NCBI RefSeq assembly: GCF_963675165.1
Contig: NC_087387.1
Span: forward strand, 5,668,990-5,732,989
Direction of reading: 5' to 3'
Length of the DNA: 64,000 nucleotides
Origin: Halichondria panicea
Taxonomy: Eukaryota; Porifera; Demospongiae; Suberitida; Halichondriidae
Numbering within the stretch: position 1 is the stretch's first letter; the number at the start of each line of letters is the position of its first letter. Below, one piece after another: positions 1,178 to 50,406 of the stretch. Below the pieces are notes generated by a model that did no database searches, was not told where the DNA came from, and saw only the letters and a program-made list of their open reading frames with translations. Both the position numbers and the translations under genes were made by a program.

Positions 1178-1274
1178 AGTCGGTCCCAGGCCGATTTTTT
1201 TTTAATAGAAGGAAGTTGAAAAATAAGGCGACCTAGCGTTCAATTGGAGACGGATCGGCCTGGGATCGAGGCTA
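1178..1274. mobile_element. TAGCCTCG-family MITE (97 bp) with 9-bp target duplication
   Basis: The right end reads CGGCCTGGGATCGAGGCTA. The left end is a slightly eroded inverted copy (AGTCGGTCCCAGGCCG). The element is flanked by direct copies of GGTAAAGCA at 1169-1177 and 1275-1283. It has no coding capacity. Confidence 0.88.
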
Positions 1275-1283
1275 GGTAAAGCA

Positions 1284-1811
1284 ATATTTAATCTTGCTTT
1301 ATTGTCTGTGTCTCTGCACTTACAGTTTAACAAAACAAGAGATGGCACTGCATGTATATTGTGTGAAATTGTGGCATGACTGGGCTAGCTAGTCGACACC
1401 ATGCACGGGATATGCTAGCGCACTGTAACGTTGGAACTGACTCAGCTCTATATATAATTATAGCCTTAGTCACAGCTTCATCTGTTGTTGGAGGTGCCTA
1501 ACGATTAATAGCAAGTGATGGCTCTAGCAGTGGAGGGTGTGGGACAATGGTAGTTCAGTAAGTGAGCCCCGCCCACTTATTGAACTGTGATGACTAAGCA
1601 TCACTAGACTAGTTTTCTCGAAGTTTTCTTGTTTAAAGCTGAGGATTACTCTTATTTAGCAGTAGTTTCAAGCCTTTTCAGGCTTGCTAAGCCTTTATTG
1701 GAGTTTAATAATCCAGCTCAAGAGCAGTAACCTTGAAAATCCGGGATATCTGAGGTGAATAACAGTTTCTTTTAGGGACAGGGGTGCTAGATCTAAATCT
1801 GGGACAGTCTA
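1284..1811. other. Non-coding spacer
   Basis: Unassigned AT-rich sequence between two MITEs. No ORF, structured repeat or gene relic was recognised. Confidence 0.4.
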
Positions 1812-1820
1812 GGCTAGTTT

Positions 1821-1881
1821 TAGCCTCGATCCCAGGCCGAGTTTTCGCTTTTATCGAAAACTCGGCCTGGGATCGAGGCTA
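1821..1881. mobile_element. TAGCCTCG-family palindromic MITE (61 bp), 9-bp target duplication
   Basis: An almost perfect palindrome opening TAGCCTCGATCCCAGGCCG, with arms meeting around TTTTCGCTTTTATCG. Direct copies of GGCTAGTTT lie at 1812-1820 and 1882-1890. This is the minimal form of the family: two TIRs and almost nothing between them. Confidence 0.93.
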
Positions 1882-2655
1882 GGCTAGTTTGGGACAGTTG
1901 GCAAAGGTTGATGCATGCACAGATTGATTGTAGATAGATCTAATACTTTTTTTAAATTGTGCTCATTTTCCTGTTCACAAAATTGACATGCTGAATTTTT
2001 TGTCCGCAAATGATACAGCAAATGAGTACGGAGGGGGGATATTTGTGGCAGATGATACTGACACCTGCAGTGCAGCTACTCGCACCATTTTTGCTGATTG
2101 CTTCTCTCAAACAATGACTTTAGATGTATCACTCAAGTACTTCAGTCGAAACTATTTCAACACATTCATGACAAACAACACAGCTACCCAGTCAAGAGCA
2201 GATATCTATGGAGGTCTGTTGGACAGGTGTACAGCAAATCAAAATGCTGAATATTACTGGACTACATAAAGAACACCATAAAGTCCTCCACCGGATTATC
2301 AATCTCCTCTAGACCTGTTCAAGTAATTGTTTGTAGTGATAACTATAATATTTCTACAAGAAAGGGATACACATTTAAAATCAGTGTTAAGGCTATTGAC
2401 CAAGTTGGAAATCCTTTGAATGCCACAATTCACAGTTCTGTTGTCAGTAAGAGTGGAGCTGGTCGTCTCAAAGAAGGACAGACAGAACTAGCCTCCTTCA
2501 CCGGCCTTCAAGCAAAAAGAAGGCCTGCTACTGACTGCTTGCGCATGCGAGAAATTATTGGATATATTTTCCTGTAAAATTCCCTATAATTAGAGATGTA
2601 AGACCGGAAGTAGTGCGTGGGCGTATTTTCGTACAGTAATTCAATGGTTAGCCTC

Positions 2656-2657
<2 letters not shown>

Positions 2658-2694
<37 letters not shown>

Positions 2695-2966
2695 CAGGGT
2701 TAATGTAATGAAAAAACTAAAGTCATGTAAAAGTTAAAACCATGTATTTATTCATTGAAGTTTAGTTCCGAGTTGGCCAGGTCCGCTGAGGGGTGATTCT
2801 GGGACCTGGCTGGCTGTCCACGACTGGAGCGGGATCCTCTGATGCACTGAATGGCAGAGCGTAGGAGAGAGAATGTAATTCTGCTCCTTAGCCAGGACAG
2901 TGTTCTACTGTAGCTTTCATTAGATTTGATTGCCAAGTTTGAGGCAAGCCTTTTGTGGCCTGGTTG
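2658..2966 (-). mobile_element. 5'-truncated retroposed insertion with poly(A) tail
   Basis: A 37-nt T run (2658-2694) opens the insert, so read on the minus strand it ends in poly(A), with AATAAA upstream (complement of 2742-2751). GCCTCGATT is present at both edges (2651-2659 and 2967-2975), the expected duplication of the host TIR. The minus-strand frame (2748 to about 2960) contains ALLR-type text (SWLRSRITFSLLRSA, CIRGSRS). From memory this resembles C-terminal peptides of invertebrate retroelement polyproteins. I read it as a short 3' fragment of a retroelement, with the exact family unsure. Confidence 0.7.
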
Positions 2967-3152
2967 GCCTCGATTCCAAGCCGCTGAGAAAGACGGCCTG
3001 GTATACATGCGCCAGAATTACCCAGAATCTGGGTAATCGTAAATTGCAGTATATTTATCAGTATTCTTATTCCGCATTAGTTTTTAAAACATTGATATCC
3101 GTTTCATTTATAATGATGTCATTGAAAAAAGAAATCTAGTCCAAGTTGTGTA

Positions 3153-3347
3153 ATGGCTGCTACCTTCTCTTCTGCTCTCGCGTACGTGTTATCCTGTGTT
3201 GGAAAACCAGGTCTAGTCTTGAAAGACAAGCAGCTGGAGGCGTTGAAGTGTCTGTACGCTGGTGTTTATGTGGGTACCGTACCGACCGGCTATGGCAAGT
3301 CCCAGAGCAAGTCCATCTGCTTTCCAGACACTCCCTTTCTTGATTGA
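3153..3347 (+). pseudogene. RecQ-like helicase N-terminal fragment, decayed copy
   Basis: This 64-codon frame opens MAATFSSALAY, then has a Q-motif-like stretch (LKDKQLEALKCL) and Walker A (PTGYGKS). It is followed by a small insertion (QSK) and a frameshift that ends it early. Motif Ia-like text (VMVISPLVSLSE) continues in another frame near 3390-3430. The same fragment in better condition is at 16001-16339. Real RecQ helicases are hundreds of residues long and need the DEAH box and C-terminal RecA lobe, all absent. This is cargo of a transposon. Confidence 0.75.
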
Positions 3348-4700
3348 TGTGAAGCTTGACAGGACCAGTGCACCTCTCTCTGAAAGAAGTGTTGTGATGG
3401 TGATTTCTCCTCTTGTTTCTCTGAGTGAAGCCATCTTCAAAGTGTTGGTGTGTCTGTTCGACGTTCAGTGCCATTCTCTCTGGAAGGAAGTATTGTTGTG
3501 ACATTTGGCGAAAATTGGTCACAGAGTAAGTACGTGGTATCTGGTCCGAGAACTGTGTGGCCTGAATGTGTTTACAATCCGAGGACTTGTGTGTATCCGA
3601 TCCGAGGGACTTGTTGCTTGAGTGTGTATTAATGGATAGTGCTTTCAATGGTAAATCTAGTGTGTAAATCAATAAGTAGTCCTCACATTATGTTACGTCA
3701 CAGCCACTGTACTTATCCACATTTATTTTTTACCCACAGGTTTAACTAAGATTAACTTGTCGCCTGAGTGTGTATCCGATCCGAGCCTCAAGTTAATGAA
3801 TAAATCTACAGAGCTGATGTTTTACTTAGCTGTCTCTGTCTACAGTATATACAGAGAGGTAGCCTCTCCTTTTTCTTCTTTATCACAATAAGATAAAATA
3901 CTGTTTTAACGTTCAATGAGATAAAATACGGTAAATAATAAATTAATTGTCCACCCACGCGCCAACAGTAAATACCAGGCCCACTATTCAAGGGGCTGGA
4001 GTCGAGGCTATTCAATGGTAAAAAACGGGACCAGAAAGTGAGTGAACAAGAAGGGCTTTCCGCAAGCCCTGGAAGAGTCTAGCAAACAACAGCTGTTCCC
4101 AGGGGTAAAAAATAGCGTAGAATTTGATTTTTATAACAGTTTTTTATGATTTTAGCATTTGATGTTTGTTTTGTGTGTGATTTTTTCTCAAAGGTGATCA
4201 TCATTTTGGCAACCAAACATGAAAATGAACAAAAACACAAGTGAGCATGTCTTTCATCTCTAACTCTCTCCAGATTATGCAAAAAGTTGCTACAATAAGC
4301 TTTTATTTCTTGCGGAATCACATATTGCATGGATAGATGGGTGGAGCTGAGAATAGAAATGCAGTAAAATCAAGCCAAGTGTACCAATAGCTGTATTTAT
4401 TTCTTAGAAGTTCTTAGAAGTTACTGAAAGTAATTATTGAAGCAATCTGAAAGCCTCTGTTGAAAAGAAACAAGAAAGATTGGAGAGAATTCCAGGGACA
4501 ACAATGTAATCTACCAAAACTATTAAATTGCAAGAACTGATTCAATTTGCACACAAAAATGACAAGAGTAATCTACTGTATTAATTAGAAGCTGTCAACA
4601 GAGTTGTATCATAGATTTCTTGCATGTTGCTATTGACAGCAATTTTGAATTTATTATTACATGTAGCTATTAGCCATACAAAGAACAAGTAGAGTAGAGA

Positions 4701-5309
4701 ATGAGTTCTACTAGACTAGGTGTAGGCTACTCAATGGACCTTAAACTTAATGTTGCCCCTGAAGGGTGGTTCTCTGATGAAGAAGGTCCTTTGACAGGTC
4801 CTTTGACAAAGAAACAAAAACTTCAACTTGAATCTCGATTTAAAACTGCCACTGAAGAAGACCTAGACAGCTACACAGAAAAACAAGCACCAAAAAACAC
4901 AAATTACTCTACTACTTGGGCTGTTCGCAACTTTTTAGACTGGATAAAGCAGCGGAATTTGCGTTTTCCAACTGTTCCAGTACCTGAAGCGCTCCTAACA
5001 TCTGGCACTGCCAAACAATTGGACCGTTTGTTGTCTTTTTATGTACTGGAAACCCGAAATAACAAAGGAAATCCTTATCCTCCAAAAACCCTTTACCAGC
5101 TACTGTGTGGGCTGCTTCGACACATGCGCGGAATAAACCCAACACCCCCAACTTCCTTGACAATACCAACCCCTCCTACAAGAAGATCCACCCACAAAAC
5201 GGAAACATCCAGCTCCTCCCCCAGTTTTGCAGCAAACAAGCCCAGCACACTTCCCAAGAAACGAGCGGCTCGTACTACTCTCACAAAGCGAAAGGGAAGA
5301 CACCTATAA
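4701..5309 (+). pseudogene. Crypton/KIAA1958-like recombinase N-terminal region, frameshifted
   Basis: The 202-residue frame starts with an acidic/Lys-rich leader. Residues about 70-150 (TTWAVRNFLDWIKQRN, LLSFYVLETRNNKGNPYPPK, LYQLLCGLLRHMRGIN) match my recollection of the N-terminal domain of KIAA1958/QRICH1/ZMYM-type proteins, which derive from Crypton tyrosine recombinases. After about position 5135 the family-like sequence jumps to the next frame (NTPNFLDNTNPSYKKIH, read from 5105), so a frameshift is present. The original frame runs on as low-complexity Ser/Thr/Pro. The catalytic tyrosine-recombinase domain is not found downstream, so this is a broken fragment inside the 5.1-kb element. 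Confidence 0.65.
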
Positions 5310-5674
5310 GCTATAATTTTTGCAGCAAACAAGCCCAGCAAACGAGCGGCTCCTATACTACTCTTGAAAAAAGCGAAAGGAACTTTAGGAAGAAGCCAAA
5401 GCTAGAATCCCAGCACTTCCATACATCCAGCTCCTCCCCCATGCTTAAGTCATGCTTAATAATTTTCTTTGTTTATTTTCCTTATCACACAATCATGTTA
5501 AATATTATTTAAACACGTGAAAAACATCCATTGTACATCTGTATTAACATTTTCCCTAACCACAGGGATCTGTATATGATTCCCAATCATTCCTATGTAA
5601 TAGCAGGTTCTGTATCACAGTTATAAACCATTGTATACCTTAGCAACCACATAGCAACGGGCAAGAAGAAAACA

Positions 5675-5785
5675 GTTATTGACCAATCACACAGTTTGTA
5701 TGGATATACAGTGCATTCAAACCTCGGGCAAAGCCCTCGGGCATCATGCACTGTATATTCCATACAAACCTTGTGATTAGTCTAT
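5675..5785. repeat. Foldback element
   Basis: Two inverted arms meet around CTCGGGCAAAGCCCTCGGGC. One arm reads ATTGACCAATCACA...GTATGGATATACAGTGCAT and the other is its imperfect complement ending TAGTCTATAAC. Similar central CTCGGGC text recurs in the foldback at 6777-6893. Confidence 0.75.
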
Positions 5786-6092
5786 AACTATAACTTATAG
5801 TTGTATGGCCTTAAATCTACATCACACTAAAAACGAATTATTTAGACCAAATGAAATTGACAGAAAAATTGCTTATAAAGATCAAGAAACAGATACAAGC
5901 GTAAGTTGGACATTGATGAGAGTTCTGAAACATGATACAATATACTGTACGAAAGAAAAGATAGCATGGTTACTTTAAATCCAAAAGAACTCTCTGAAGC
6001 AGGAGACATCATACTATTATAGGGACATCATAAAGATATACATTACAGAAACATTATAAACTTCATAATAGATATCAAATGGTTACAATGTT

Positions 6093-6234
6093 AACTCCTG
6101 AGTCCTGAGTGTCCATTTCATACTTTTTTAAAAGAGAATAGACCAAGCGGTTCAGCAGATATGAACTCCTGAGTCCTGAGTGTCCATTTCATACTTTTTT
6201 AAAAGAGAATAGACCAAGCGGTTCAGCAGATATG
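6093..6234. repeat. Exact 71-bp tandem duplication
   Basis: Two adjacent units (6093-6163 and 6164-6234), each starting AACTCCTGAGTCCTGAGTG and ending GCAGATATG, look identical base for base. This suggests a very recent duplication or an assembly artefact. Confidence 0.92.
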
Positions 6235-6776
6235 CTAACTTTAAGATCATTTCCGGTATTAGAAAATGCTTGTAGTAATACTGCAATCTGATAGGTCACT
6301 GAGAGGTCCATTATTTCACTTATGGACCTGAGGTCTTCTAAGTAGGTCTATTATACTGATTATGCCTACAGGCAAGATGATGTCAAGATTAACTTGTATG
6401 GAACATGGCAACATCACACAGTTTATGTTGAAGTCATAGTAATGATGATACAGTGCATCATTAAAAATTAATTTTTTTTAAAGTTTTGCGTTCTGCAGTG
6501 CCGCTTTGCAGCTTTTATCTCTCTCTTGCAGCTACAATAGCTAGTGCTCTAGTGCAGAGCTAACTACTATGACAATAGCAACTTTTTATTTGCAATGCGT
6601 GATTCTCAAGAAACAGAAACTGCCTTCATGCATCAATGTGAGTTTTTTTATGTAGACTAGCCAGAGCAAAGCTTTAATGTTGCTTGAGGCTTGTAGAAAC
6701 TCTTGGTTTCAGAGTCTTCTTTGTGTTAATATAGCCTAGCTTGCTTAGCACTATTCTAAACCAGTTATAGGCCTCG

Positions 6777-6893
6777 TCCAACGGTCACTATGGAGTTTTG
6801 AGACCCTCAGGCCCTTAGTAGCACCCTCGCTACGCTCGAGATGCTACAGCCTCGGGCCTTCAGGTCTCAAAACCCCATAGAGACCTTGGACTC
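6777..6893. repeat. Foldback element
   Basis: The left arm (TCCAACGGTCACTATGGAG, then TTTTGAGACC) pairs with a right arm ending GGTCTCAAAACCCCATAGAG. The centre holds CGCTACGCTCGAG. Similar in plan to 5675-5785 and probably the same class of non-autonomous foldback. Confidence 0.75.
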
Positions 6894-8683
6894 AGTCTAT
6901 AACTATTATTTAATAACAAATTTCATAAGTCCCATTAAAATGCAGTAAATTTTTGTACGAATTTTTCCCTGACTAGTGTTCTTCAAAACTCTGTATCTCT
7001 GCATTCGCTTGACCAAATCCAGTGCAGTAAAGTTTTTCTGGTTTGCCTAGAGTGTTCAAAAGAGATAGTAATACATAGGAGTTAGAAATAGCAAAAATGA
7101 AAATCGGTCTGACATCGCTACTATAATACTGAATAATACTGAATTTATCACGAAAATATCCTGACAAAGTATTGAAAGTCATACATAGAGCTATTATAGC
7201 TAGCTAGCTAGAGACAGAGCTGTAGGTTTGTTGTACAGCTATTTTCTTTCTGATAGAGTCAGTAGCAGTAGTAAAGTAGACTTTTCACCAAGTTAGTATT
7301 TGATGGGCGTGGCCTGTCCATATAGGCTCTTGTCAGCTTTCACTCTGTTCAGACGATTGTCATCCACACTGTTGCTGGCTGTGAGTCTTTTGTTAACATA
7401 GTAGGCTAAGGGTAGCTATCAGAATACTATCAGATGGGCTAGAAACCTTCAATGGAATCTTCTATCTACTTCCTTTAATCCACTTCCGTTTGTTGTGACG
7501 TCATTGTTTTACTGACCATAAACGTTGTTATCCGGATCCGCCAGATACCGGCGGAAGATTAGCGCATGCGCAAGCAGTCGATACCAGGCCCACTCTTCAA
7601 GGAAGTGCGGCCTGGGATCGAGGCTAAGACAGAACAGTAGAATTCTCACAAGACAGCTCTGCTCAAGTGAAACTCTATGCCGAGGGTCCATGCAACAATT
7701 TGGGAATTTCAGGAAAACTTGTTTATATTTCTTTTCAACTCTGCATATGTCCTATTGAACTCAAGCCAATTCAGTCCAAAATTGAGTGCAAGTGTGACTG
7801 TGATATAGACTTGCTACCATATCAGATAACAAATTGTTTTGAGGAAAATGTGACCATAACGCTGGAAAGTAACACCGTATGTTATATATACTACCAACAA
7901 AACAGGGTATGTTGTTAGCAACTGTACATTTGACTATTGTGTAGAAAGACCCATCAACATCAGTCTAAGCAGCCCTGACGAACAGTGTGCCTACAATCGA
8001 AGTGGTGTCTTGTGTGGAGAATGTAAACCAAGACTCAGTCTTATGTTAGCTACGTCAAGATGTACACTATGCTCTGATCTTTACCTTCTTCTACTAATAC
8101 CATTTGCACTGGCTGGTATATTGCTCGTTGCCTTAATTAATTGTTTTGCTTAACATGACTATAGCAACTGGAAAGTTTCATGGCCTCATTTTCTATGCCA
8201 ATATTCTAGCAGCCAACAGATCAATTGTCTTACCCAATACAAATAACAACTTTTTAACAGTTTTTGTATCATGGGTGAATCTTGACTTGGGTATCGAGAC
8301 ATGCTTTTACAATGGAATGAACTCTCAAGTAAAAGTACTCCTTCAACTTGTCTTTCCAGCTTACTTGTTTCTTCTAATGTTTCTTATTATTTTTGAGCAA
8401 ATACTTTAACCTATTTGCAAATCTCCTCTCCTGGGACAAGAACCCAGTTGCTGCCCTAAGCACACTCGTCCTACTCTCTTGTTCTAAACTTTTATTGTGT
8501 ATCATTGCTGCTCTACAATACAGGGTCTTGGAATATCTCGATGGTTCAACCAACACTGTTTGGTTGTACGACGGCAATGTGCAATACTTCACTCTCAAAC
8601 ACATCCCTCAATTTTTTGCTGCTATTGTAATCCTCATTGCCGATGGATTGTTCACTGTACTACTCTTTTTTGGACAATGGTTT

Positions 8684-9659
8684 TGAGATAACTTCAATAA
8701 TTCATTAAATCAGAACTCTGTTTCATAATAAACAACACAGGTATTTATACAAAAACGATAACTAAACTAGAACTAGTAAATATAGAACACAGACATTACA
8801 TCATAAGTACAGTAGACACAGTTTACCACTAACACCTAATATAGTCTATTCAAGTTATGCCTTGCAAGGGCATGAATGTTTAGCCTCCTTCGTAGCCTCT
8901 CCTTTTTCTGTTCTTTGTCACTGTAGTTCAATAAGATAAAATACGGGACGAATTGGAGGAACAAAGAAAGAAAGAAGGAAGAGACTAAGAAAAAGGAGAG
9001 CCTGCCTTGCTAAGTCGCGTGACGGTAGACGAGTGGTAGACGAGTGAAAATGAACGTGGGCAATCACTAGCTGGGCGGAGCCTGACAGAGCAAAAAGCTA
9101 CAGCATGCCTACGCATTGCATTGCAAACTCTAAATAAAAGCTGTTAGCATCGTAGATAGTAAGCCAGAATCAAGCGTGGAGACATCGTAGACGAGGGCTT
9201 ACCTAGTAAAGACTAAAGAGACTAAATATCTAAATTTAGCTCAGTTTTTTTTCCTGAGTTCAGAACAGACCCACTTGATTAGTAGATATAATTATTACAG
9301 CAGTATAGTCTACTCTACTCTAGTCTTTCATACTTCCTCTACTGACTAAAGGTCTCACGAAGGCTGACTCTACTGCACTGTACTGTACTGTTCATAACAG
9401 ATTATGTTCCTGGTAAATGCGCTCCAAGTACTGTGTGGGAGGACAGTTATTGAGGTTTTCTCTCGCCCACGCTCGTTAAAATTTGTCTTCGTCAGTAGGG
9501 GATCACGCGACTTAGCAAGGCAGGCTTTCCTTTTTCTTAGTTGCTTCCTTCTTTCTTTCTTTGTTCCTCCAATTTTCTCTTCTGTGACAAAGAACAGAAA
9601 AAGGAGAGGCTGCGAAGGAGGCTAATGAATGTTCAAGACATCACAGTAAGGATACCACA
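8684..9659. mobile_element. Solo LTR (about 223 bp) with a nested 744-bp TIR element
   Basis: The insert begins TGAGATAAC and ends ATACCACA (TG...CA), and is flanked by GGTTT at 8679-8683 and 9660-9664, a 5-bp duplication typical of LTR retrotransposons. Removing it restores the pmpL reading order (GGACAATGGTTTCCTCGC). After subtracting the nested element and its duplicated 9 bp, about 223 bp of LTR remain. No gag or pol sequence is present, so it is a recombined solo LTR. Confidence 0.8.
8881..9624. mobile_element. 744-bp long-TIR element of the TAGCCTCG class, 9-bp target duplication
   Basis: The ends are TAGCCTCCTTCGTAGCCTCT and its inverted counterpart (AGGAGGCTA), extending into TIRs of well over 100 bp that include the AAAGAAAGAAAGAAGGAAG tract and CTTAGCAAGGCAGGC. 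Direct copies of ATGAATGTT flank it (8872-8880, 9625-9633). The motif AACAGAAAAAGGAGAGGCT also occurs inside 15471-16536, which ties the subfamilies together. The ORFs crossing it are shadows. Confidence 0.88.
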
Positions 9660-11820: not shown

Positions 11821-11866
11821 TAGCCTCGATTCCAGGCCGCTTTTAATCGGCCTGGAATCGAGGCTA
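11821..11866. mobile_element. 46-bp TAGCCTCG-family MITE, 9-bp target duplication
   Basis: The smallest family member: TAGCCTCGATTCCAGGCCG joined to its inverted copy through TTTTAAT. CACCGCGCC flanks it at 11812-11820 and 11867-11875. The equivalent insertion is present in block II (29660-29705). Confidence 0.93.
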
Positions 11867-12737: not shown

Positions 12738-12740
12738 CTT

Positions 12741-15470: not shown

Positions 15471-16536
15471 TAGCCTCGACTCCAGCCCCTTGAATAGTGG
15501 GCCTGGTATTTACTGTTGGCGCGTGGGTGGACGATTAATTTATTATTTACCGTATTTTATCTCATTGAACGTTTAACAGTATTTTATTTTATTGAACGAT
15601 TGTGATAAAGAACAGAAAAAGGAGAGGCTACCTCTCTGTATATACTGTAGACAGAGACAGCTAAGTAAAACCTCAGCTCTGTAGGCTCGGATCGGATCAT
15701 ACACACTCAGTCGACAAGTCAATCTCATAAAAAATTAGTTAAACCTGTGGGTAAAAAATAAATGTGGATAAGTACAGTGGCTGCGACGTAACATAATGTG
15801 AGGACTACTTATTGATTTACACAATAGATTTACCATTGAAAGCACTATCCATTAATACACACTCAAGCAACAAGTCCCTCAGATCGGATATGGATACACA
15901 CTCAGGCGACAAGTCCCTCGGATTGTAAACACATTCAGGCAACACATTTCTCGGATCAGATACCACGTACTTATACTCTGTGACCAATTTTCGGCAAATG
16001 TCACAACAATGCTTCCTTCCAGAGAGAATGGCACTGAATGTCAACCAGACACACCAACACTTTGAAGATGGCTTCACTCAGAGAAACAAGAGGAGAAATC
16101 ACCATCACAACACTTCTTTTAGAGAGAGGTGCACTGGTCCTGTCAAGCTTCACATCAATCAAGAAAGGGAGAGTGTCTGGAAAGCAGATGGACTTGCCAT
16201 AGCCGGTCGGTACGGTACCCACATAAACACCAGCGTACAGACACTTCAACGCCTCCAGCTGCTTGTCTTTCAAGACTAGACCTGGTTTTCCAACACAGGA
16301 TAACGCGTACGCGAGAGCAGAAGAGAAGGTAGCAGCCATTACAACTTGGACTAGATTTCTTTTTTCAATGACATCATTATAAATGAAACGGATATCAATG
16401 TTTTACAACTAAATGCGGAATAAGAATACTGATAAATATACTACAATTTACGATTACCAAGATTCTTGGTAATTCTGGCGCATGCGTAAACAGTGTTTAC
16501 CAGGCCGCCTTTCCCTGCGGCCTGGAATCGAGGCTA
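15471..16536 (-). mobile_element. Helicase-fragment-bearing TAGCCTCG element, 9-bp target duplication
   Basis: The ends are TAGCCTCGACTCCAGCCCC and (inverted) TAGCCTCGATTCCAGGCCG, with CTGATAAGT at 15462-15470 and 16537-16545. Block II has the empty site near 34785-34795, where GTGACTGATAAGTACGTTG is uninterrupted. Subterminal GCGCATGCG matches the 5.1-kb element. It carries the RecQ-like fragment at 16001-16339. Together with 2649-4010 it defines a mid-size subfamily of about 1.05 kb. Confidence 0.92.
16001..16339 (-). pseudogene. RecQ-like helicase N-terminal fragment carried by a transposon
   Basis: A 112-residue open frame, the best-preserved copy of the fragment. Residues about 22-36 (LVLKDKQLEALKCL) resemble the Q motif. 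PTGYGKSICF near residue 45 is a Walker A (motif I). VVMVISPLVSLSE near residue 75 matches motif Ia of RecQ-type SF2 helicases. There is no DEAH motif, second RecA lobe, zinc-binding or HRDC region, so no helicase activity is expected. The frame ends a little past motif Ia, as one captured exon of a host gene would. The alternative is the relic of an element-encoded helicase. The frame being open suggests recent capture or some constraint. Confidence 0.7.
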
Positions 16537-16934: not shown

Positions 16935-17218
16935 CTTGCTGAATAGAACCTCTTGCACAGACTGTCAGTACTCACTTCACTTTGGTCCAGGTAGCTGCAT
17001 GAGCTATAATAACCAAATAATGCACCAGATTTCCTAAATTCCACTTTGGTCCACTGTATACTGACTAAAAGCTGATAGCTGAAAACTAAGCTGATAGAGC
17101 CATAGCTAATTTCAGATTCTGTAATCCAATTACATACTGCTATTAATTTAGCCTTTCTGGAATTAAAACACAATCATTAACATGCAACAATCATCATCCT
17201 CATACATGCACCTCAGAT

Positions 17219-22575: not shown

Positions 22576-22639
22576 TAGTCTCGAATACCCGCCTCAACCT
22601 AAAAGCTTGATTTTAGGTTGAGGCGGGTATTCGAGATTA
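22576..22639. mobile_element. TAGTCTCG-family foldback MITE (64 bp) in an intron, 9-bp target duplication
   Basis: The left arm TAGTCTCGAATACCCGCC and its inverted right arm (GGCGGGTATTCGAGATTA) surround AAGCTTG. TGCATGTGC flanks both sides (22567-22575, 22640-22648). The block II equivalent near 41042-41055 has a single copy and no insert, a clean empty site. Same architecture as 50344-50406. Confidence 0.95.
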
Positions 22640-24234: not shown

Positions 24235-24239
24235 AGTTG

Positions 24240-29659: not shown

Positions 29660-29705
29660 TAGCCTCGATTCCAGGCCGCTTTTAATTGGCCTGGAATTGA
29701 GGCTA
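29660..29705. mobile_element. 46-bp TAGCCTCG-family MITE, block II twin of 11821-11866
   Basis: Same element and same CACCGCGCC duplications (29651-29659, 29706-29714), with two C-to-T type changes since the duplication. Confidence 0.92.
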
Positions 29706-32605: not shown

Positions 32606-34619
32606 ATGGGGTGCCATTTGTGTCAAAATTAATACAAATTGCACGTACATTATAAATGAATACATATATATATATAAATGCAGATGGTGCATATATGATA
32701 TGCAGGTGCCCCATATGTAAATGCAGCATGTGCATATAGCAAATGAAGTGTTTGCATATACAAATGCAGCACGTACATTTGTATATGTACCTGATATATA
32801 TAAATGCAGCAGTCGCATATAATAAATGCAGCAGTCCCATATAATATATGTAGCAGTCGCATATAATAAATGCAGCAGTCCCATATAATATATGTAGCAG
32901 TCGCATATAATATATGCAGCAGTCGCATATAATAAATGCAGCAGCCTCATATAATATATGTAGCAGTCGCATATATAAATGCAGCAGTAGCATATAATAA
33001 ATGCAGCAGTCCCATATAATATATGTAGCAGTCGCATATAATAAATGCAGCAGTCCCATATAATATATGTAGCAGTCGCATATAATATATGTAGCCTCGA
33101 TCCCAGGCTGAGTTTTCGCTTTTATAACGGTTAGGCGAACCAGTTGTTCGCCTAACCGTTATAAAAGCGAAAACTCGGCCTGGGATCGAGGCTAATAATA
33201 TATGCAGCAGTCGCATATAATAAATGCAGCAGCCTCATATAATATATGTAGCAGTCGCATATATAAATGCAGCAGTAGCATATAATAAATGTAGCAGTCG
33301 CATATAATATATGTAGCAGTCGCATATATAAATGCAGTCGCATATAATAATTATGTCTTGGTGCGCATGCGCATGCAAGTGAGGTATTACGGGTATACGG
33401 TAGTGTGTTTATGTGTCTTGTGTGTAGACTCGACTATAGCTGCTATACAGCTGCTCAAGGATCAATGAAGTGCAAGTAAGGGTTTCTATAGGCCTTCTAG
33501 TAATGTTTTCTTGGATTTAATTAGTGTATTTGCAATTTGTTCTCGAGTTATGCTAAGTGTTGCTTACTTGCAATGACATTGCAGCCTTTTGAGAAGAGTG
33601 TGTAGAAAAACTTGTCCATGCATGGTGACTGAGTATTGCTACTCTTAGACTATACTTATAGTAGTTAGCTCTGCACTATAGAACGCTATATATATATAGC
33701 TATTGATAGCTGCAAGAGTGAGAAGAGAGCTCTGCTGCAATTAGGCTCTATAGCCATTCATTTTATACTTGGACTTTGGCATCGATCCTAACAATCATGG
33801 ACGATCATTACCCACTCGTTGCATTTATTATTGGGACTGCATTTGCGACTGCTGCATTTATTATATGCGACTGCTACACGACTGCTACATATATTATATG
33901 GGACTGCTGCATTTATATATGCGACTGCTACATATATTATATGCGACTGCTACATATATTATATGGGACTGCTGCATTTATATATGCGACTGCTACATAT
34001 ATTATATGAGGCTACTGCATTTATTATATGCGACTGCTACATATATTATATGGGACTGCTGCATTTATATATGCGACTGCTGCATATATTATATGGGACT
34101 GCTGCATTTATTATATGACGCTGCTGCATTTATTATAATTATGCGACTGCTGCATTTATTATATGCAACTGCTGCATTTATTATATGCGACTGCTGCATT
34201 TATTATATGCAACTGCTGCATTTATTATATGCGACTGCTACACGACTGCTACATATATTATATGGGACTGCTGCATTTATATATGCGACTGCTACATTTA
34301 TTATATGCGACTGCTGCATTTATTATATGCAACTGCTGCATTTATTATATGCAACTGCTGCATTTATTATATGCGACTGCTACATATATGATATGCGACT
34401 GCTGCATTTATTATATGACACTGCTGCATTTATATATATCAGGTACATATACAAATGTATGTGCTGCATTTGTATATGCAACCACTTCATTTGCTATATG
34501 CACATGCTGCATTTACATATGGGGCACCTGCATATCATATGCACCATCTGCATTTATATATGTATTCATTTATGATGTACGTGCAATTTGTATTAATTTT
34601 GACACAAATGGCACCCCAT
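32606..34619. mobile_element. 2.0-kb TIR element with inverted arrays of a 21-22 bp repeat, block II only
   Basis: The TIRs start ATGGGGTGCCATTTGTGTC and extend at least 200 bp (imperfect). Inside each arm is a tandem array of about 21-22-bp units of the type ATATAATAAATGCAGCAGTC, running in opposite orientations, with a non-repetitive centre of about 450 bp (33360-33830). ATAGTTAT flanks the element (32598-32605, 34620-34627; up to 11 bp can be matched). Block I at 15295-15310 (TTAGCATAGTTATTCC) is the empty site. The long open frames in the arms (CIYYMRLLH-type) are artefacts of the repeat. The left arm is interrupted by the MITE at 33092-33194. Confidence 0.92.
33092..33194. mobile_element. 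103-bp TAGCCTCG-family MITE inside the 2.0-kb element
   Basis: The ends are TAGCCTCGATCCCAGGCTG and CGGCCTGGGATCGAGGCTA, with an extended palindrome (TTATAACGGTTAGGCGAAC and its complement). ATAATATATG flanks both sides (33082-33091, 33195-33204), a 10-bp match where 9 is usual; the repeat context makes one base ambiguous. Confidence 0.92.
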
Positions 34620-35238
34620 ATAGTTATTCCTTTGATCTCTGTGCAAAAAACTACAAAATTATATGCCGATCAATCGAGGCCAGCTTAGTTAGTCTCGCGG
34701 ACCCAGACCCTGAAGGAGATCTGGCCATTTTCACAGTACAGAGTTGTTTTGACCTCACCAAAATATCGTGGTGCTCTAAGTGACTGATAAGTACGTTGTG
34801 AAACCGCATAGCTGCAGGGCTAGCTAAAATAGATTTGGCAAATCTAATTATGTGGTTTCACACATCCGTCCTCCACCCACTAACCACTTATCAATGTAAA
34901 CATGCAGCCACTTGACTGCTGCACAAGTAGCTCATGCGTAATTTTTCAGACGATATAATATATCGGCTGGTCCACGAAAGTAAGTTCAGTAACAATATTG
35001 GTTCTAGAGCGGATATATACAATAATTATAATAGTATCTATAATTATGATATGACTGTTTTTTAATCTGCAATAATTATAATTATACCATAGGTTAATTA
35101 AGTTTTATACGTTTTATTCAGAGCTAATTCAGATTCTGTGATCCAATTATATACTGCTATTAATTTAGCCTTTCTGGAATTAAAGCACAATCATTAACAT
35201 GGCAACATTATCATCATCCTCATACATGCACCTCAGAT

Positions 35239-38200
35239 ATGCTGTCTAGAAATATTCTCAGCTGGTTTGTGCTGCTCCTGACCCTAGCTACTGTTACCAG
35301 GAGTGAGCACTATCACATTGTGCCAGTGGATTCAACCGACTTGTGTCATGATTATCGAAATGAAACTTGTTTTACTCTCGAGCAGCTTGTTCAAACAAAC
35401 CTGTTATCTGGTGGAGACAATCTCACCTTGAGCTTTCTACCTGGAGATCATGTGCTAACTGAGCAGTTATTGATTCGTAAATTCTCACATGTGCATATTA
35501 CCGGCCAGAACGACAGTACAACTATAGTCAGATTTCACAGCAATGGTACGATGCGTTTTGTTAGTACTACTGAATTATATATTGAACACTTGGGTTTCGT
35601 TGGAGCGAAAATTGGACTGCAAAACTCACATAAAAGTTGGATCATTGATGGTGCCCACGATGTCTATGTCAATGACTGCTACTTTATGAACTTTGTACTA
35701 CTCAATCCGGCGGAAACCCACATAGTTAAGATTTCTAATACTCAAGCTGCAACAATTGAGAGCACTCTCTTTATGAACAACACTGGTCAGGCACTGCACG
35801 TTGAGGCTGATGATGTGTACATAACAAATAGCGAGCTTACTAGAAACAATGGAGGTGCAGTTGACATTGAATCAAACAACACACTGATCAACAACACAGA
35901 GTTCAACTATAACAGTGCTGAGAGATTCAGTTCTTCGAGCGGAGGAGCAGTACAAGTGGGATCTGGAACTGTAGTGATCACTTGGTGTAACTTCACAAAT
36001 AACAACGCTTCTCAGTATGGTGGAGCAATATATGTTGACTCAGGCAGTGTGACCATCTCCAACTGTGAGCTGACAAACAACAGTGTTAACTTTGGTGGGG
36101 CGATTTATGTTCAGTCCGGTAGTGTGTCTATCATCAAAAGTGAGCTGACAAACAACAGAGCTCACAATAATGGTGGAGCAATTGGTGTTAACTTAGGCAG
36201 TAATGTGTCTATCTCCGACAGCACACTGACAAATAACAGAGCTGAAGTTTGTGGTGGAGTAATTCTGGTTGACTCAGGCAGTGTGTCTATCTCCAACAGC
36301 ACACTGACAAACAACCATGCTGACTCTGATGGTGGAGTGATTCGTGTTACCTCAGGCAATGTGTCCATCTCCAACAGCACACTGTCAAACAACAATGCTG
36401 GCGGTAATGGTGGTGGAGTGATTAATGTTTACTCAGGCAATGTGTCCATCTCCGACAGCACACTGACAAATAACAATGCTAACTATGGTAGTGGTGGAGC
36501 AATTAGTCTTAATTCAGAGAACACAGACTGCTTTGGTGGAGGGATTATTGTTGACTCAAGTGAATCTAGTGTGATCATCTCCGACAGCACACTGACAAAC
36601 AACAGAGCTAGTTATGGTGGAGCGATTGGTGTTTACTCAGGCAATAGTGTGATCATCTCAAACAGCACACTGACAAAAAATAGTGCTAACCAAGATGGTG
36701 GAGCGATTATTGTTGACTCAAGTAGTTTGAACATCTCCGACAGCATACTGACACATAACAGTGCTACTGACTCTGGTAGTGGTGGAGCAATTGATGTGGC
36801 CTCAGGCAGTGTGACCATCTTCGACAGCACACTGACAAGCAACAGAGTTAACAATAATGGTGGAGTAATTAATGTTTACTCAAGTAATGTGTCGATCTAC
36901 AACAGCACACTGACAAATAACAGAGCTAATAAGAGTGGAGTAATTGATGTTTCACAAACAGCCACCTTGATCATCAATAACACTAACATTACTAATAACA
37001 ATGCCATGGTCAGTTTATACATTTTACAGTCTAATGTGAAATTCACTGGATCGAATATTGTCAGCAATAACAATGGCCCTGTCTATGCTTTCAATAGTCG
37101 AGTTGATTTTAATGGACCTACAACACTCAGTAACAATCGCGGTGTGTTTGGTGGAGCTCTCAGCATTATTCAGAGTCAAATGTACATTAACACAGGAAGA
37201 GTGATCATCATCAACAACACAGCTACCTCTGGAGGAGGGATATTTCTGAGAGAGAGTACACTCTTTGTAAATAAGGAGTCTTCACTAAAGATCAATCAAA
37301 ACAAAGCACACAAGGATGGTGGAGGGATTTATGCATATTCAAGCAGACTTGAGTTCCAATCTGTGCTGATGCGTGGTCCATCTGGTGAGCTACTTCCACC
37401 ACATACACAATGTGAGATTGCTCACAACATTGCTGAAAATGGTGGAGGTATTAATGCAGTAGCTACAACCATTAAACTAGCATCTTCATATGTCAACATC
37501 GACTCAAACACCGCAAACACTAGTGGAGGTGGAGTGTATCTACAGCAAAATTCGAAACTGTACCTCTTTAAAGATCAATTTGAGCATCTTATTATAGCTT
37601 ATCAATCATATTATCAGTATTATGTCAAGTTAATGATTAACAACAACTTGGCTCAGTACGGTGGAGGGATATTTGTGGCAGATGATACAGAGAGTGGTGC
37701 CTGCAGAGGAGGGGCCAACAAAACTAAAAACAAAGCTACTCAAAACATTTTTGCGGATTGTTTCATTCAAACAATTTTGTTAAGTACTGAATCAGATGAT
37801 ACCCCCGACAATAGTAACTATTTCAACACATTCATGTAACAACACAGCTACCCAGTCAGGAGCAGACATCTACGGAGGTCTGTTGGACAGGTGTACAGCA
37901 AGTCAAAGTGCTGAATATCACATTTCTTCAAACGAATCTCCAATAGATTACATAAACAAAACAGTAAAATTCTCCTCGATCTCCTCTAGGCCTGTTCGAG
38001 TAAAGTTATGCCAAAGTGACAATATTTCCACAAAAAAGGGACACACATTTAAAATCAGTGTTATGGCTGTTGACCAAGTTGGAAATCCTTTGATTGACAC
38101 GATTCACAGTTCTGTTGTTAGTAAGAGTAGAATTAACCGTCTCAAAGAAGGACAGACAGAACAGGAAGTTGGTAATCAGTGCACAGAATTAGAGTACAAT

Positions 38201-40057
38201 GTATTCTCACAAGACAGCTCCGCTCAGGTGGAACTCTATGCTGATGGTCCATGCAACAATTTGGGAATTTCGAAAAAACTGATCAATATTTATTTTCTAA
38301 ACTGCACATGTCCTATTGGACTCAAGCCAATTCAGTCCGATATTGAGTGCAGGTGTGACTGTGATCCAGACTTGCAACAAGAATATCAGATAACAAATTG
38401 TTTTGAGGAAAATGGAGTCATAACGGTGGAAAGAAATAACAACACGTGGATACAAGTCAAAAATACCACCAATGAAACAGGGTATGTTGTTAGCAGCTGT
38501 ACACTTGACTATTGCGTACAAAAACCAGTCAATATCAGTCTAAGCAACAGTGACGAACAGTGTGCCCACAATCGAAGTGGTGTCTTGTGTGGAGAATGTG
38601 AACCAGGACTCAGTCTTGTGTTGGCTACGTCAAGATGTGAACGATGCTCTAATTTTTACCTTCTTTTTCTAATTCCATTTGCACTGGCAGGCATATTGCT
38701 AGTTGCTTTAATTCTTGTGCTCAACATCACTATAGCAACTGGAAAGATTCATGGCCTCATTTTCTATGCCAACATACTAGCAGCTAATAGATCAATTGTC
38801 TTACCAAATACAAATATTAACAATTTTTTGACAGTTTTCGTATCATGGGTGAATCTTGACTTGGGTATTGAGACATGCTTTTTCGGTGGAATGAAGTCTC
38901 AACCAAAAGTACTCCTTCAACTTGTTTTTCCAGCTTACTTGTTTCTTTTAATGTTTTTTATTATCATTTTGAGCAAGTACTTTGACTCATTTGCAAATCT
39001 TCTCTTGAACAGGAACCCAGTTGCTGCCCTAGGCACACTCGTCCTACTCTCTTATTCCAAACTTTTACGGTTTATCATTGCTGCACTGCAATACAGGGTC
39101 TTGGATTATCCTGACGGTTCAACCAACACTGTTTGGTTGTATGATGGCAATGTGCAATACTTCACTCCCAAACACATCCCTCGGTTTGTTGCTGCTGCCA
39201 TAATCCTCATTGCCGGTGGATTGTTCACTATACTGCTCTTTTTGGGGCAATGGCTTCCGCACTGTTCAATGCTTACGATATGGACCGAGAACACAAGGTA
39301 CATTGGCTTCATGGATACATACCATGCTCCATTCACTCCCAAGCATCGCTACTGGGTGGGACTGCTCCTCTTCGCTCTGATCCTCCACAACCTAGTAACT
39401 GCTACGGTTTCAGACACTTTTCTTCCCGTGCTAATGTCTGGGGTTCTATCAGTTGGACTGATTGTCTGGAAACTACTAAATAATCGTTTGTACAAAAGTA
39501 AGTTCTGTGATTCCCTCGAAACTCTCTATCTATTCAATGTTGCTATTCTTGCATTTGGCACCTCTTATGTCAAAGATACAAAGAAAGATCAGTCAGCACT
39601 AGCCAATACGTCGATGGTGCTATCATTCACTTTATTTGTAATTACATTCTGCTACCATTTTTACAAATTCGTACTCAAGAAGAGTAACACATGGCTGAAG
39701 ATAGAGGACATCCTAAGGAATTTAAGAGCTGGTGTTGCAGACAGACGAGCTAACAATAATCGAGAATTGTATCATCCAAGAGTCTATGAAAATGATGACG
39801 AAAACGATTATGAACAAAGAGACTCCGTGGACTTACCTTACACTGATGGAGCAATGGACGAAGCTGACCCTGATCGCTACATCACACCTCCCATCATCAG
39901 ACCAGCCACGAGGCCTGACCAGCTGAGACTACCCTACATGGATGAACTATCCCCCCTCATTACAGAGGACTACAGACCAGCCCCTCCCCCTACAAGAGTC
40001 AATCGTCGTCCTGTTGTTACGCACACAGAAATCAGCCCCATACGCAATGAAGTGTGA
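35239..40057 (+). pseudogene. pmpL, block II copy: complete but for one frameshift
   Basis: The first frame (35239-37839, 866 residues) has the signal peptide, N-domain and a longer set of GGAI/LTNN beta-helix repeats than the block I gene. It stops at TAA (37837-37839) where the pseudogene at 2160 has two more bases. The second frame (about 37840-40057) then runs uninterrupted through the collar (CGECEPGLSLVLATSRCERC), eight membrane segments and proline-rich tail to the same C-terminus. Without the frameshift the protein would be about 1,600 residues. Everything else looks conserved, so this is either a very recent null allele, a sequence error, or two separate products (a soluble beta-helix and an unexported membrane part). 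The last is least likely. I saw no splice sites that would bypass it. Confidence 0.88.
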
Positions 40058-42499: not shown

Positions 42500-42509
42500 G
42501 GTTGTACAC

Positions 42510-44590: not shown

Positions 44591-44593
44591 ATA

Positions 44594-44765: not shown

Positions 44766-45004
44766 TACAAATATTACTTAGACACAGACACTCTCCAGTT
44801 AGTCAAGCTTACAACCTATACACAATTGCAATATTGCATGCATGAATGTATATTAAATTGCTCGTTGTGGAAACCGTTACTATAATAATTATCACATAAA
44901 TACATTCCTATTATATACTTTAGCTGCTGCCATCTCATTTGGAACAACTGTATAACTATTTGCCTCATTAACATACACTCAACATATACTGTTACCCCAG
45001 CAGC

Positions 45005-45340
45005 CCATATTGGTACAAGCTGCCCTGCCACCCTCATGACACCATCTTGGTACAAGCTGCCCTGCCACCTTCATGACACCATCTTGGTACAAGCTGCCCT
45101 GCCACCCTCATGACACCATCTTGGTACAAGCTGCCCTGCCACCCTCATGACACCATCCTGGTACAAGCTGCCCTGCCACCCTCATGACACCATCTTGGTA
45201 CAAGCTGCCCTGCCACCCTCATGACACCATCTTGGTACAAGCTGCCCTGCCACCCTCATGACACCATCTTGGTACAAGCTGCCCTGCCACCCTCATGACA
45301 CCATCTTGGTACAAGCTTCCCTGCCACCCTCATGACACGT
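45005..45340. repeat. 37-bp minisatellite derived from a pacifastin-like exon, block II (about 9 units)
   Basis: Nine or so nearly identical 37-bp units contain CCACCCTCATGACACCATCT. On the minus strand the array is continuous with the second-half exon beginning at 45341 (C-x-C-HEGGREACTKM), so it grew out of that exon. 37 is not a multiple of three, so the coding sense is lost after the first unit. Confidence 0.92.
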
Positions 45341-48162: not shown

Positions 48163-48169
48163 CTTTGTT

Positions 48170-49330
48170 GAGAGTTTTATTTAAAAGTTCTTGTGTTGCT
48201 ATAATATATATAGGTTCTGGAACATGTGTGATATAGCATATAGCCTACATGCAGTTGACGTAAACCATATTTTTGGGGTGAGACCCATGCATGCACAACT
48301 AAAATGGATGCAACATATCGTATTACATGTACCTGACCCTAAGTGCATGTATATAGCTACGGTCAAATTGTTGGAAGTTATAATAATTATGCCGGATTAA
48401 ATCATATAGCTTTCAACAATTTGCTATTATACCTGCACTATCAAAATTAATTCGACAGTATATAGCTAGCTATACCTGCACTTAGGATCATGCAGGTAGA
48501 TCAATATCATCCATATTTAACAGCTGTGAATATAGCTTCCTGTGATTACGATCACAGCTGAACGTTAAAGATGGATGAAACATATCGCATTACCTGATCC
48601 TAGGTGGAGGTAGCTACCATCAAATTGTTGAAAGCTAGCTTACTATAGGCCCACACATTGTACATGCATATCGCATTACCTGCATGATTCCAAGAATTAA
48701 CATGTACAAACTGTTCTTAATAGACCCCCACAAGATGAGGAAGCATATCACATTATACCTTTGATCCTATTATGTCATTTGAGAGGTAAAAGTATTTGCC
48801 AATTTGGCCGTACCATGGATTATAGCCCATGCATGTGTGTGTGTGTGTGGGGGGGAGGGGGGAGGGGGAGGGGTATAAGTGTATAGTAGTATAAGGTACT
48901 ACTCACACACATGCATGTGCATAGTCCATGAAATCATTGCGACACTATAAACCAAAAGCTGTAACTAGTAAGTGGGACAACTCGATTAGCTATTATCTGG
49001 ATCAAACAGAAGACCTAAAAGGCAGTAAGGTGATACCACCTGTGTATAAACTCAGGGCCGCATACACGAGATTTACCCTTTAACCCTAGTTTCATGCAGA
49101 ACTTCGGTGTACAAAAACTGTAGAAGTACTGTATAATAATATGGAACAAGATTGTGGCAAAAATTTAATGTGAATTTAGTGCTTGTGAAATTCCTTAGAA
49201 TTATTGAAGTGTGTCTTAATTAGTATGCTTTCATATTTACTATACTAAGTAGGGTACTACTTCATGGCTGATGCTACGTATACTTTTGTATCCTGGTAAT
49301 TGACGAATTGAACAACAACTATAGTAAAGT
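48170..49330. other. Intergenic spacer with GT/G-rich microsatellite
   Basis: Non-coding AT-rich DNA. Around 48835-48872 there is a GTGTGTG tract followed by a G/GGGA tract. Several near-repeats of ATCGCATTACCTG(A/C) occur. No gene seen. Confidence 0.5.
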
Positions 49331-49332
49331 AC

Positions 49333-50040
49333 CTCATATACAGTTTTTGCTGGTTTCGTCCAGTTATTGACACAGAGTCTTGAGAGACTTGTATAAAGTA
49401 TTTGTCTTCACCAACTGTAGCAATGCAATCATGCTGGTAACTCTGGTATCCCCAAGCAGATCTGAAAACAGAAACAAGTCGACCAACTTAACTTAATACC
49501 TTATCATGCTGTATACAAAAAAACACTCGAAATTCACTTTATAAAATTAAAATTATGCCAGGACAACATTCAGCATTGTAAAGAACTTTATTTACTCAGT
49601 CTACAAAAGATATACTAAATCAGGTATGCTACATAATTATACAATTATACAGTCACAGTTTCAAGTTAGTCCATTTGTGTCTTTCCAGTTCAATATAGAA
49701 GTCCGCAACATTATCCACTGGTGCAACACGGCAATATAAACAGGCAACAGATACCCCCCTGGTGAATCTTACCCACATCTGCACCTACTGCCACTGAATT
49801 CATGGAGTAAATATTATACATTTCTTAAATGAGAGACTCCACTATACATGCACGCATGCTAAATTAAGGTATTACAGTATTATATAAATGATAATTATAG
49901 AAATCTCGAAAGTAATGTTCACACGTACCTTGCTTGACTGCTATCTCTAATGCAGTCTTCAGCCCACCATTATTGACAGTAGGTGCAGCAGACACCATGG
50001 CTACCATGGCAATGATGCTCAACAAAATAAAGGTCTTCAT
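49333..50040 (-). CDS. Small secreted protein gene, product unrecognised (partial model)
   Basis: Exon 1 (49929-50040) encodes MKTFILLSIIAMVAMVSA then APTVNNGGLKTALEIAVKQ and ends in phase 1 at GTACG, like its neighbours. A compatible exon 2 is 49657-49717 (VDNVADFYIELERHKWTNLK, phase 1 to phase 2). Exon 3 is 49333-49461 (SAWGYQSYQHDCIATVGEDK, then YFIQVSQDSVSITGRNQQ), ending AG|GTACTTT. The mature part is not pacifastin- or TIL-like and has one Cys. The 3' end is not found. A decayed copy of exons 2-3 lies at 52920-53310. Exons 2 and 3 rest on phase agreement only. Confidence 0.5.
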
Positions 50041-50343
50041 CTTTGTATCCAAATACAGTTTCAAGGATATGATACTGACAACTTCAGAATCTATAGCTGT
50101 AAGTTGTTTTATTCCACACTATATATAATTATACATAATTATATGCATATACATGCGAAGTGTTGTAATCCCCGGCTATACCAGAGTCCTTGAACTGAAG
50201 CTGCATGCATGTTCATACCATGCAAGCTAGACCACAACAGAAGCCTGACTCATGTATAAATGGAATGGGGTGTTGCAAAACATGCCATTTGGACAACAAG
50301 TATAAGGCTTCTGTTTTGATACATACATTTACCAGATAATTAT

Positions 50344-50406
50344 TAGTCTCGAATACCCGCCTCAACCTAAATCAAGCTTTTAGGTTGAGGCGGGTATTCG
50401 AGACTA
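50344..50406. mobile_element. TAGTCTCG-family foldback MITE (63 bp), 9-bp target duplication
   Basis: Arms TAGTCTCGAATACCCGCC / GGCGGGTATTCGAGACTA. GATAATTAT flanks it at 50335-50343 and 50407-50415. Sister of 22576-22639 with the centre in the other orientation. Confidence 0.95.

What the first reader, a model, noticed from the sequence alone, without database searches (positions are those of the whole stretch)
1178..50406. Superfamily of TIR elements with 9-bp target duplications, 46 bp to 5.1 kb
Elements at 1178-1274, 1821-1881, 2489-7626, 2649-4010, 8881-9624, 11821-11866, 15471-16536, 29660-29705 and 33092-33194 all start TAGCCTC(G/C) and end in its inverse. Each has a readable direct flank: GGTAAAGCA, GGCTAGTTT, AGACAGAAC, TTCAATGGT, ATGAATGTT, CACCGCGCC (twice, duplicate copies), CTGATAAGT and ATAATATATG (10 bp). 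A sister form with TAGTCTCGAATACCCGCC ends (22576-22639, 50344-50406) also has 9-bp flanks. Nine bases is the usual Mutator duplication length. The minimal copies are almost pure TIR, which makes this a compact, unusually size-plastic family.
Basis: partly seen in the sequence, partly recalled or inferred. Interest (0 to 1): 0.8.

Follow-up and report, generated by a model that had tools for sequence, protein, structure and literature searches.

The report
AcademH-type jumping genes and their remnants
The repeats are a real and very numerous group of DNA transposons that copy 9 or 10 bases of their target, and they fit the helicase-carrying AcademH group rather than Mutator; the tiniest copies look like repeatedly formed deletion leftovers made of little more than the two ends.

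Summary
In detail: all 11 listed elements have exact direct flanks (ten 9-bp, one 10-bp). But 1178-1274 has a damaged left tip, and 2489-7626 and 2649-4010 contain nested insertions. The genome holds 3255 exact 19-bp ends and 231 sister ends. Of 81 elements checked, 51 have exact 9-bp, 5 exact 10-bp and 2 exact 8-bp flanks, 5 match 9 bp with one mismatch, 18 show none. An empty site confirms one insertion.

Mutator is not supported. Of 14 Pfam-scanned loci with DUF6589, 13 also gave a convergent RecQ-like helicase match and none a MULE domain in the ORFs scanned. Six of them are complete TIR elements of 5.3-6.4 kb with 9-bp duplications (four with TAGCCTC ends). Helicase plus 9/10-bp duplications is what Kojima reports for AcademH (PMC10045372, passage). 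That DUF6589 is the transposase is inferred.

Minimal copies are diverse (44-49 bp: 19 cores in 31 loci; sister 46-65 bp: 7 sequences in 8 loci), so most look like recurrent deletion products. In ten of eleven families tested the ends hold a hairpin whose arms differ between families and could supply the repeats for such deletions.

The parts
1178..1274 (.). 97-bp element, left tip damaged; TSD GGTAAAGCA
1821..1881 (.). 61-bp palindromic minimal element, 27-bp perfect arms; TSD GGCTAGTTT
2489..7626 (.). composite: ~0.6-kb non-autonomous element (2489-2583 and ~7137-7626) with nested repeats inside; TSD AGACAGAAC
2649..4010 (.). nested 1.05-kb helicase-fragment element plus ~310-bp insertion with a T run in its left tip; TSD TTCAATGGT; empty site in L074 and L086
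4616..5794 (+). unrelated nested repeat carrying an ORF with a weak (below cut-off) QRICH1 match (4698-5309); missing at the same point in the 34 other copies of the surrounding repeat that one search listed
8881..9624 (.). 744-bp element, TSD ATGAATGTT; ends like those of the 6.1-kb DUF6589/helicase element in L070
11821..11866 (.). 46-bp minimal element, TSD CACCGCGCC
15471..16536 (.). 1066-bp non-autonomous element, TSD CTGATAAGT; 39 other full or partial copies of 85-95% identity (40 candidates scored of 854)
16001..16402 (-). 133-aa ORF, N-terminal piece of a RecQ-like DEAD helicase (DEAD match slightly below Pfam's cut-off)
22576..22639 (.). 64-bp sister-family element, TSD TGCATGTGC
29660..29705 (.). 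46-bp element with the same flank as 11821-11866, probably duplicated with the host DNA
33092..33194 (.). 103-bp palindromic element of the 1083-bp family, 10-bp TSD ATAATATATG
50344..50406 (.). 63-bp sister-family element, TSD GATAATTAT; same sequence (reverse complement) as L091

Best explanation
These are AcademH-type cut-and-paste DNA transposons and their non-autonomous derivatives. Full elements of 5.3-6.4 kb carry two convergent genes: a DUF6589 protein, inferred to be the DDE-type transposase, and a RecQ-like superfamily-2 helicase. The transposase is inferred to pair the TAG...CTA tips and join them to target DNA with a 9-bp (sometimes 10-bp) stagger, giving the observed duplications. 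Non-autonomous copies (about 0.6, 0.7 and 1.07-1.09 kb) are inferred to be moved in trans. In ten of eleven families tested, the ends hold a hairpin that starts 9-12 nt after the tip; the hairpin arms of the two ends form short direct repeats, and deletion between them (for example during interrupted gap repair after excision) would leave 44-65-bp elements in place that are little more than two tips. Shown: ends, duplications, an empty site, the two genes inside TIR-bounded elements, diversity of minimal cores. Inferred: catalysis by DUF6589, trans-mobilisation, the deletion route.
For: Six complete elements with exact 9-bp TSD and DUF6589: L003, L004, L006, L007, L012 and L070; L004's TSD CATCATCAT is of low complexity. 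Pfam: DUF6589 plus DEAD and/or Helicase_C in 13 of 14 loci, convergent in all 13; over Pfam's cut-off in 12, below it in L070. RecQ_Zn_bind over cut-off in L003 and L010, below it in L069, L070, L072. Kojima 2023 (PMC10045372, passage): AcademH makes 9 or 10 bp TSDs, AcademX 3 or 4. PMC10799480 (passages) names DEAD and Helicase_C among the helicase domains of AcademH, KolobokH or Helitron. TSD table of 81: 51 exact 9, 5 exact 10, 2 exact 8, 5 one-mismatch 9, 18 none. The 1066-bp elements hold the helicase N-terminus; their window copy 2649-4010 matches both ends of L004 at 69 and 79%. Empty site. L006 family: 3 of 6 copies have their own exact 9-bp TSDs at different sites. Minimal elements: 19 cores in 31 loci; 7 of 30 cores equal a hairpin loop of long-element ends.
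Against: The link between DUF6589 and the Academ transposase was not shown by any tool: no paper held names DUF6589, the 2020 AcademH paper is not held, and a profile search of solved structures found nothing useful (best E 1.5). No full autonomous parent was found for the sister family or for the exact 1066-bp family; in L013, likely parent of the 1083/103/61-bp family, only one end was located. 18 of 81 examined show no TSD; two of these (L023, L065) have matching ends. L009 has DUF6589 and inverted ends but no recognisable TSD, and no helicase in the one ORF scanned. Identical minimal elements at different sites are also compatible with transposition of the minimal form.
Confidence: 0.86

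Rival explanations
1. Mutator-like elements (MULEs): 9-bp duplications made by a MULE transposase.
For: Nine-bp TSDs; MULE domains occur in this genome (31 matches).
Against: No MULE domain in the ORFs scanned from 14 DUF6589 loci; none of the 31 MULE places lies in the window or a fetched locus; the 10-bp cases (5 of 81) and the helicase partner fit AcademH.
Confidence: 0.03
2. A DUF6589-helicase superfamily distinct from Academ that happens to share TSD length and helicase.
For: DUF6589 was not linked to Academ by any tool; L009 has DUF6589 in a 1732-aa ORF in which no helicase domain was found.
Against: The combination of a helicase with 9/10-bp TSDs is what PMC10045372 gives for AcademH.
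Confidence: 0.1
3. The 44-65-bp elements are mobile units in their own right (micro-MITEs) rather than deletion products formed in place.
For: Identical 45-bp elements with core ATTAATG stand at three sites with different exact TSDs (L037, L045, L054); the 63-bp sister element is identical at window 50344 and L091 with different TSDs; only 3 long-element ends with 5-8-nt loops were found in the genome, none with loop ATTAATG (exact pattern).
Against: 19 cores in 31 loci and 7 sequences in 8 sister loci, against 93-96% identity over the full length of seven ~600-620-bp sister copies compared with L095; the ATTAATG core could arise repeatedly by joining left and right loops at a shared TTAA (inference); five ~100-bp copies have five different centres.
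Confidence: 0.25

Closest known systems
AcademH (Academ superfamily, Kojima 2020; seen here only through passages of PMC10045372 and PMC10799480)
   Same: Encodes a helicase beside a second large gene; 9- or 10-bp TSDs; TIRs (recalled).
   Different: Family-specific ends here (TAGCCTCG, TAGTCTCG, TAGTTGGG, TAGATGGG), subterminal hairpins, very many minimal copies; whether published AcademH ends share these could not be checked.
Mutator / MULE
   Same: Usual 9-bp TSD (recalled).
   Different: No MULE transposase domain in the ORFs scanned; helicase present.
AcademX
   Same: Same superfamily according to PMC10045372 (passage).
   Different: 3-4-bp TSDs there, mostly 9-10 bp here; no nuclease domain reported for the ORFs scanned.
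MITEs of other superfamilies (recalled)
   Same: Short, TIR-bounded, high copy number.
   Different: Down to 44 bp, with mostly different cores between loci.

Membership tests
AcademH | 9- or 10-bp target site duplications | tested here: met
   51 exact 9 and 5 exact 10 of 81; definition from a passage of PMC10045372
AcademH | Element encodes a superfamily-2 helicase | tested here: met
   DEAD and/or Helicase_C in 13 of 14 DUF6589 loci scanned, in L070 below cut-off; six of these are complete TIR elements
AcademH | Academ-type DDE transposase | tested here: inconclusive
   DUF6589 with GDN(V/I)(D/A)K in 5 of 6 N-half rows; D135, D141 and E209 are among eight invariant acidic positions of 7 C-half rows, the choice is mine; not linked to Academ by any source held; no useful PDB profile hit
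AcademH | Terminal inverted repeats bounding the gene-bearing copies (recalled) | tested here: met
   L003, L004, L006, L007, L012, L070
Mutator/MULE | MULE transposase domain (PF10551) | tested here: not met
   Absent from the scanned element ORFs; the 31 genome matches lie outside the fetched loci
Mutator/MULE | 9-bp TSD (recalled) | tested here: met
AcademX | 3-4-bp TSD | tested here: not met
KDZ (Zisupton and relatives) | 8-bp TSD and KDZ transposase domain (both recalled) | tested here: not met
   Only 2 of 81 have exact 8-bp flanks; Pfam scans gave DUF6589, no KDZ model

The most novel reading that the evidence does not exclude
The subterminal hairpin is a functional part of these ends: it is kept in ten of eleven families while its two arms change together, so the helicase may open the ends and the transposase may read folded single strands, a DDE-type transposon with IS608-like hairpin recognition. 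The same hairpins then generate 44-50-bp minimal elements that can still be moved.
Probability: 0.15. Interest if true: 0.7.

Novelty: new member of a known kind. Interest (0 to 1): 0.42.

Why it matters
It assigns a conspicuous repeat class of this genome (over 3000 exact ends) to a recently described transposon lineage. It gives several families with their gene-bearing elements, empty-site proof of the 9-bp duplication, and a testable idea of how minimal elements arise. A conserved end hairpin next to an element-encoded helicase makes the role of that helicase testable.

Tried and rejected
Mutator: tested by Pfam scans and a genome search, rejected.

Capture of a tyrosine-recombinase (Crypton-like) gene by the TIR element: the QRICH1 ORF in 2489-7626 and the QRICH1/DUF3504 gene in L004 are only 28% identical over 85 aa. 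The window one lies in a separate repeat that is missing at the same point in the 34 other copies of the surrounding repeat listed, so capture was rejected for the window; for L004 it stays open.

Snap-back synthesis as the source of minimal elements: the test on the asymmetric end of the 1066-bp family found neither product (0 and 0), so it did not decide. L052/L075 (74 bp, 10-bp TSD) at first looked like a snap-back product, but a nested insertion (TATTCAAGG) followed by deletion explains it as well.

Hairpin as a universal feature: rejected, because the L070/744-bp family has none. By folding energy only 12 of 24 ends reach z of -2.5 or lower; of the control stretches inside and beside the elements 6 of 168 do.

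L087 (6029 bp between sister ends) has no TSD and no ORF of 110 aa or more; dropped as a chance pair. PDB profile search: no relative (best E 1.5). One search opened a wrong paper, not used; one search was an empty test script.

Full report
WHAT IS IN THE WINDOW. The window is G000:C11:5668990-5732989 of an unnamed 131-Mb, 39-contig genome, inferred to be a eukaryote. All 11 elements exist. Ten have exact 9-bp and one an exact 10-bp direct flank. Corrections to the finding: 1178-1274 has lost its TAGCCTC left tip; 11821-11866 and 29660-29705 share one flank and are probably one insertion duplicated with the host DNA; 2649-4010 and 2489-7626 are not single elements.

NESTING. The 1362-bp element is a copy of the 1066-bp family (arms between 2967 and 4010 pair with 15471-16534) with an insertion starting with a T run in its tip, bounded by GCCTCGATT at 2651-2659 and 2968-2976; this looks like a reversed poly-A retroposon (inference). 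The 5138-bp element has end pieces 81-89% like a 903-bp element in L071. Its middle belongs to a repeat of which one search listed 34 other copies (40 candidates scored of 531). In all 34 the stretch corresponding to window 4616-5794 (with a weak QRICH1 ORF) is missing; L074 and L086 also lack 6262-6909 and 2649-4010. At the last point L074 reads TTCAATGGT once, and in L086 the two matching pieces overlap by 10 bases: an empty site for the 9-bp duplication.

GENOME-WIDE TEST. The 19-bp end occurs 1662 times forward and 1593 reverse, control 0; the sister end 122 and 109, control 0. Both calls list only about the first 100 places. I took all 23 consecutive forward/reverse pairs under 3 kb in the list (all on C1), all 17 sister pairs under 3 kb on C1 in the list, and 30 of the 31 minimal elements (the 31st is the window's own). 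Results, exact 9 / exact 10 / exact 8 / one-mismatch 9 / none. Pairs, 23: 10/4/0/3/6. Sister, 17: 16/0/1/0/0. Minimal with intact tips, 24: 13/0/1/2/8. Minimal with damaged tips, 6: 2/0/0/0/4. Window, 11: 10/1/0/0/0. Sum, 81: 51/5/2/5/18. Of the six pairs without a duplication L020, L025 and L066 join two different end types and L033 lies in a rearranged cluster; L023 and L065 have matching ends all the same. Of the eight intact minimal elements without one, L038, L039 and L041 are copies of one duplicated site with two mismatches (a fourth copy, L040, has one), L062 has two mismatches, and L052 has a 10-bp duplication once its true 74-bp extent is used. L044, counted as 9, lies in a CTAG repeat and is weak. 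Exchanging flanks between elements gave 8 matches of any kind in 4830 pairs, partly from L017/L018, which share a flank.

THE GENES. The 1066-bp family (39 other full or partial copies of 85-95%, 40 candidates scored of 854) carries the first 130-odd residues of a RecQ-like DEAD helicase. Following that protein and DUF6589 (92 matches, a lower bound) gave complete elements: L003 2977-8619 (TSD GTGTTTACC), L004 808-7160 (CATCATCAT, low complexity), L006 1269-6617 (TCTAGTGCT), L007 1044-6456 (GTACCGTAG, ends TAGTTGGG), L012 1345-6944 (CACTGAACA, ends TAGATGGG), and L070 1063-7204 (AGCAAAATT, ends like the window's 744-bp family). Pfam scans of chosen ORFs in 14 loci with DUF6589 (L003, L004, L006-L013, L069-L072) gave a helicase match in all but L009, where only the one 1732-aa ORF was scanned; it was convergent with DUF6589 in all 13, and below Pfam's cut-off only in L070. 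L073 was not scanned. Many matches contain stops or are split, in part perhaps by introns. The L006 family has six copies with equal DUF6589 scores; three have exact 9-bp TSDs of their own, two on C10 have flanks that suggest an inversion between them (inference), and in one the left end was not found at the expected place. The DUF6589 rows share GDN(V/I)(D/A)K in 5 of 6 N-half sequences. D135, D141 and E209 are invariant in 7 of 7 C-half sequences, as are D49, D114, E139, E167 and D269: candidates for a DDE site, not proof.

WHAT IT IS. Kojima 2023 (PMC10045372, passage read) states that AcademH makes 9 or 10 bp duplications and AcademX 3 or 4, and relates this to the helicase or nuclease they encode. 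PMC10799480 (passages) names DEAD and Helicase_C among the helicase domains of AcademH, KolobokH or Helitron. Both marks are met. The original AcademH paper is not held, and no paper held mentions DUF6589, so the transposase link is inferred. MULE domains exist in the genome (31) but not in the loci examined.

ENDS AND MINIMAL COPIES. In ten of eleven families tested a hairpin starts 9-12 nt after the tip (the script looked at starts of 9-14 only). Best 10-nt arm pairing within an end averages 8.5 in 14 ends (13 of 14 at 8 or more), against 6.9 between families (37 of 174 at 8 or more, 14 of them 9 or 10) and 6.3 in shuffles (158 of 2800 at 8 or more). The arms differ in sequence between families, so they seem to have changed together; the families are related, so this is not ten independent tests, and the L070/744-bp family has no hairpin. 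By folding energy 12 of 24 ends reach z of -2.5 or lower, against 6 of 168 control stretches. The two hairpins of one element give direct repeats such as CCAGGCCG; deletion between them yields a 44-50-bp element with one loop. Of 30 minimal elements, 7 have a core equal to a loop of long-element ends (only about 100 of 359 ends were listed). There are 19 cores in 31 loci and 7 sequences in 8 sister loci; five ~100-bp copies differ in their centres. In contrast, seven ~600-620-bp sister copies match L095 over their full length at 93-96%; three others match it in part. That is as expected of an amplified MITE. I therefore favour repeated formation in place, with movement of some minimal forms (core ATTAATG at three sites with different exact TSDs) not excluded; no long-element end with that loop was found by exact pattern.

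LIMITS. One genome, no relatives, no polymorphism data; pattern samples take exact ends only and so favour young copies; the sister family's autonomous partner was not found. Paper searches on such hairpins, minimal elements and Academ (listings only) showed no report of them in title or abstract start, which is weak evidence, as the key paper is not held and most of the listed papers were not opened.

Noticed in passing
window 2658-2967: Insertion of about 310 bp starting with a long T run inside the tip of the 2649-4010 element, bounded by GCCTCGATT: looks like a retroposon with its own target duplication.
   Followed up: partly
window 4616-5794: Repeat with a QRICH1-like ORF and inverted arms near its 3' end; five further copies of 97-99% over its first 1050 bases.
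   Followed up: partly
window 15373 and 34690: Two sites reading TAGTCTCGCGGACCC followed by a small hairpin, resembling further ends of this kind; no partner end with a 9-bp duplication showed up in the scan.
   Followed up: no
   Followed up: partly
L004 4099-5366: QRICH1/DUF3504 (tyrosine-recombinase-like) gene inside a DUF6589/helicase element; capture or nested insertion not decided.
   Followed up: partly
L009 2195-7390: 1732-aa ORF with DUF6589, no helicase domain found in it, inverted ends GCTGTGCAAAAA without a clear duplication: perhaps another lineage.
   Followed up: partly
window 11.7-16 kb and 29.5-33 kb; 17147-21577 and 35164-40057: Apparently duplicated host segments; the second pair holds long beta-helix / DUF7630 proteins.
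   Followed up: no
window 32800-34400: Array of CATATAATATATGCAGCAGTCG-like units.
   Followed up: no
ends L003 left, L004 right, L006, L008 right, window 15471: Hairpin stems share a pyrimidine-pyrimidine mismatch at stem position 5 (read by eye).
   Followed up: no
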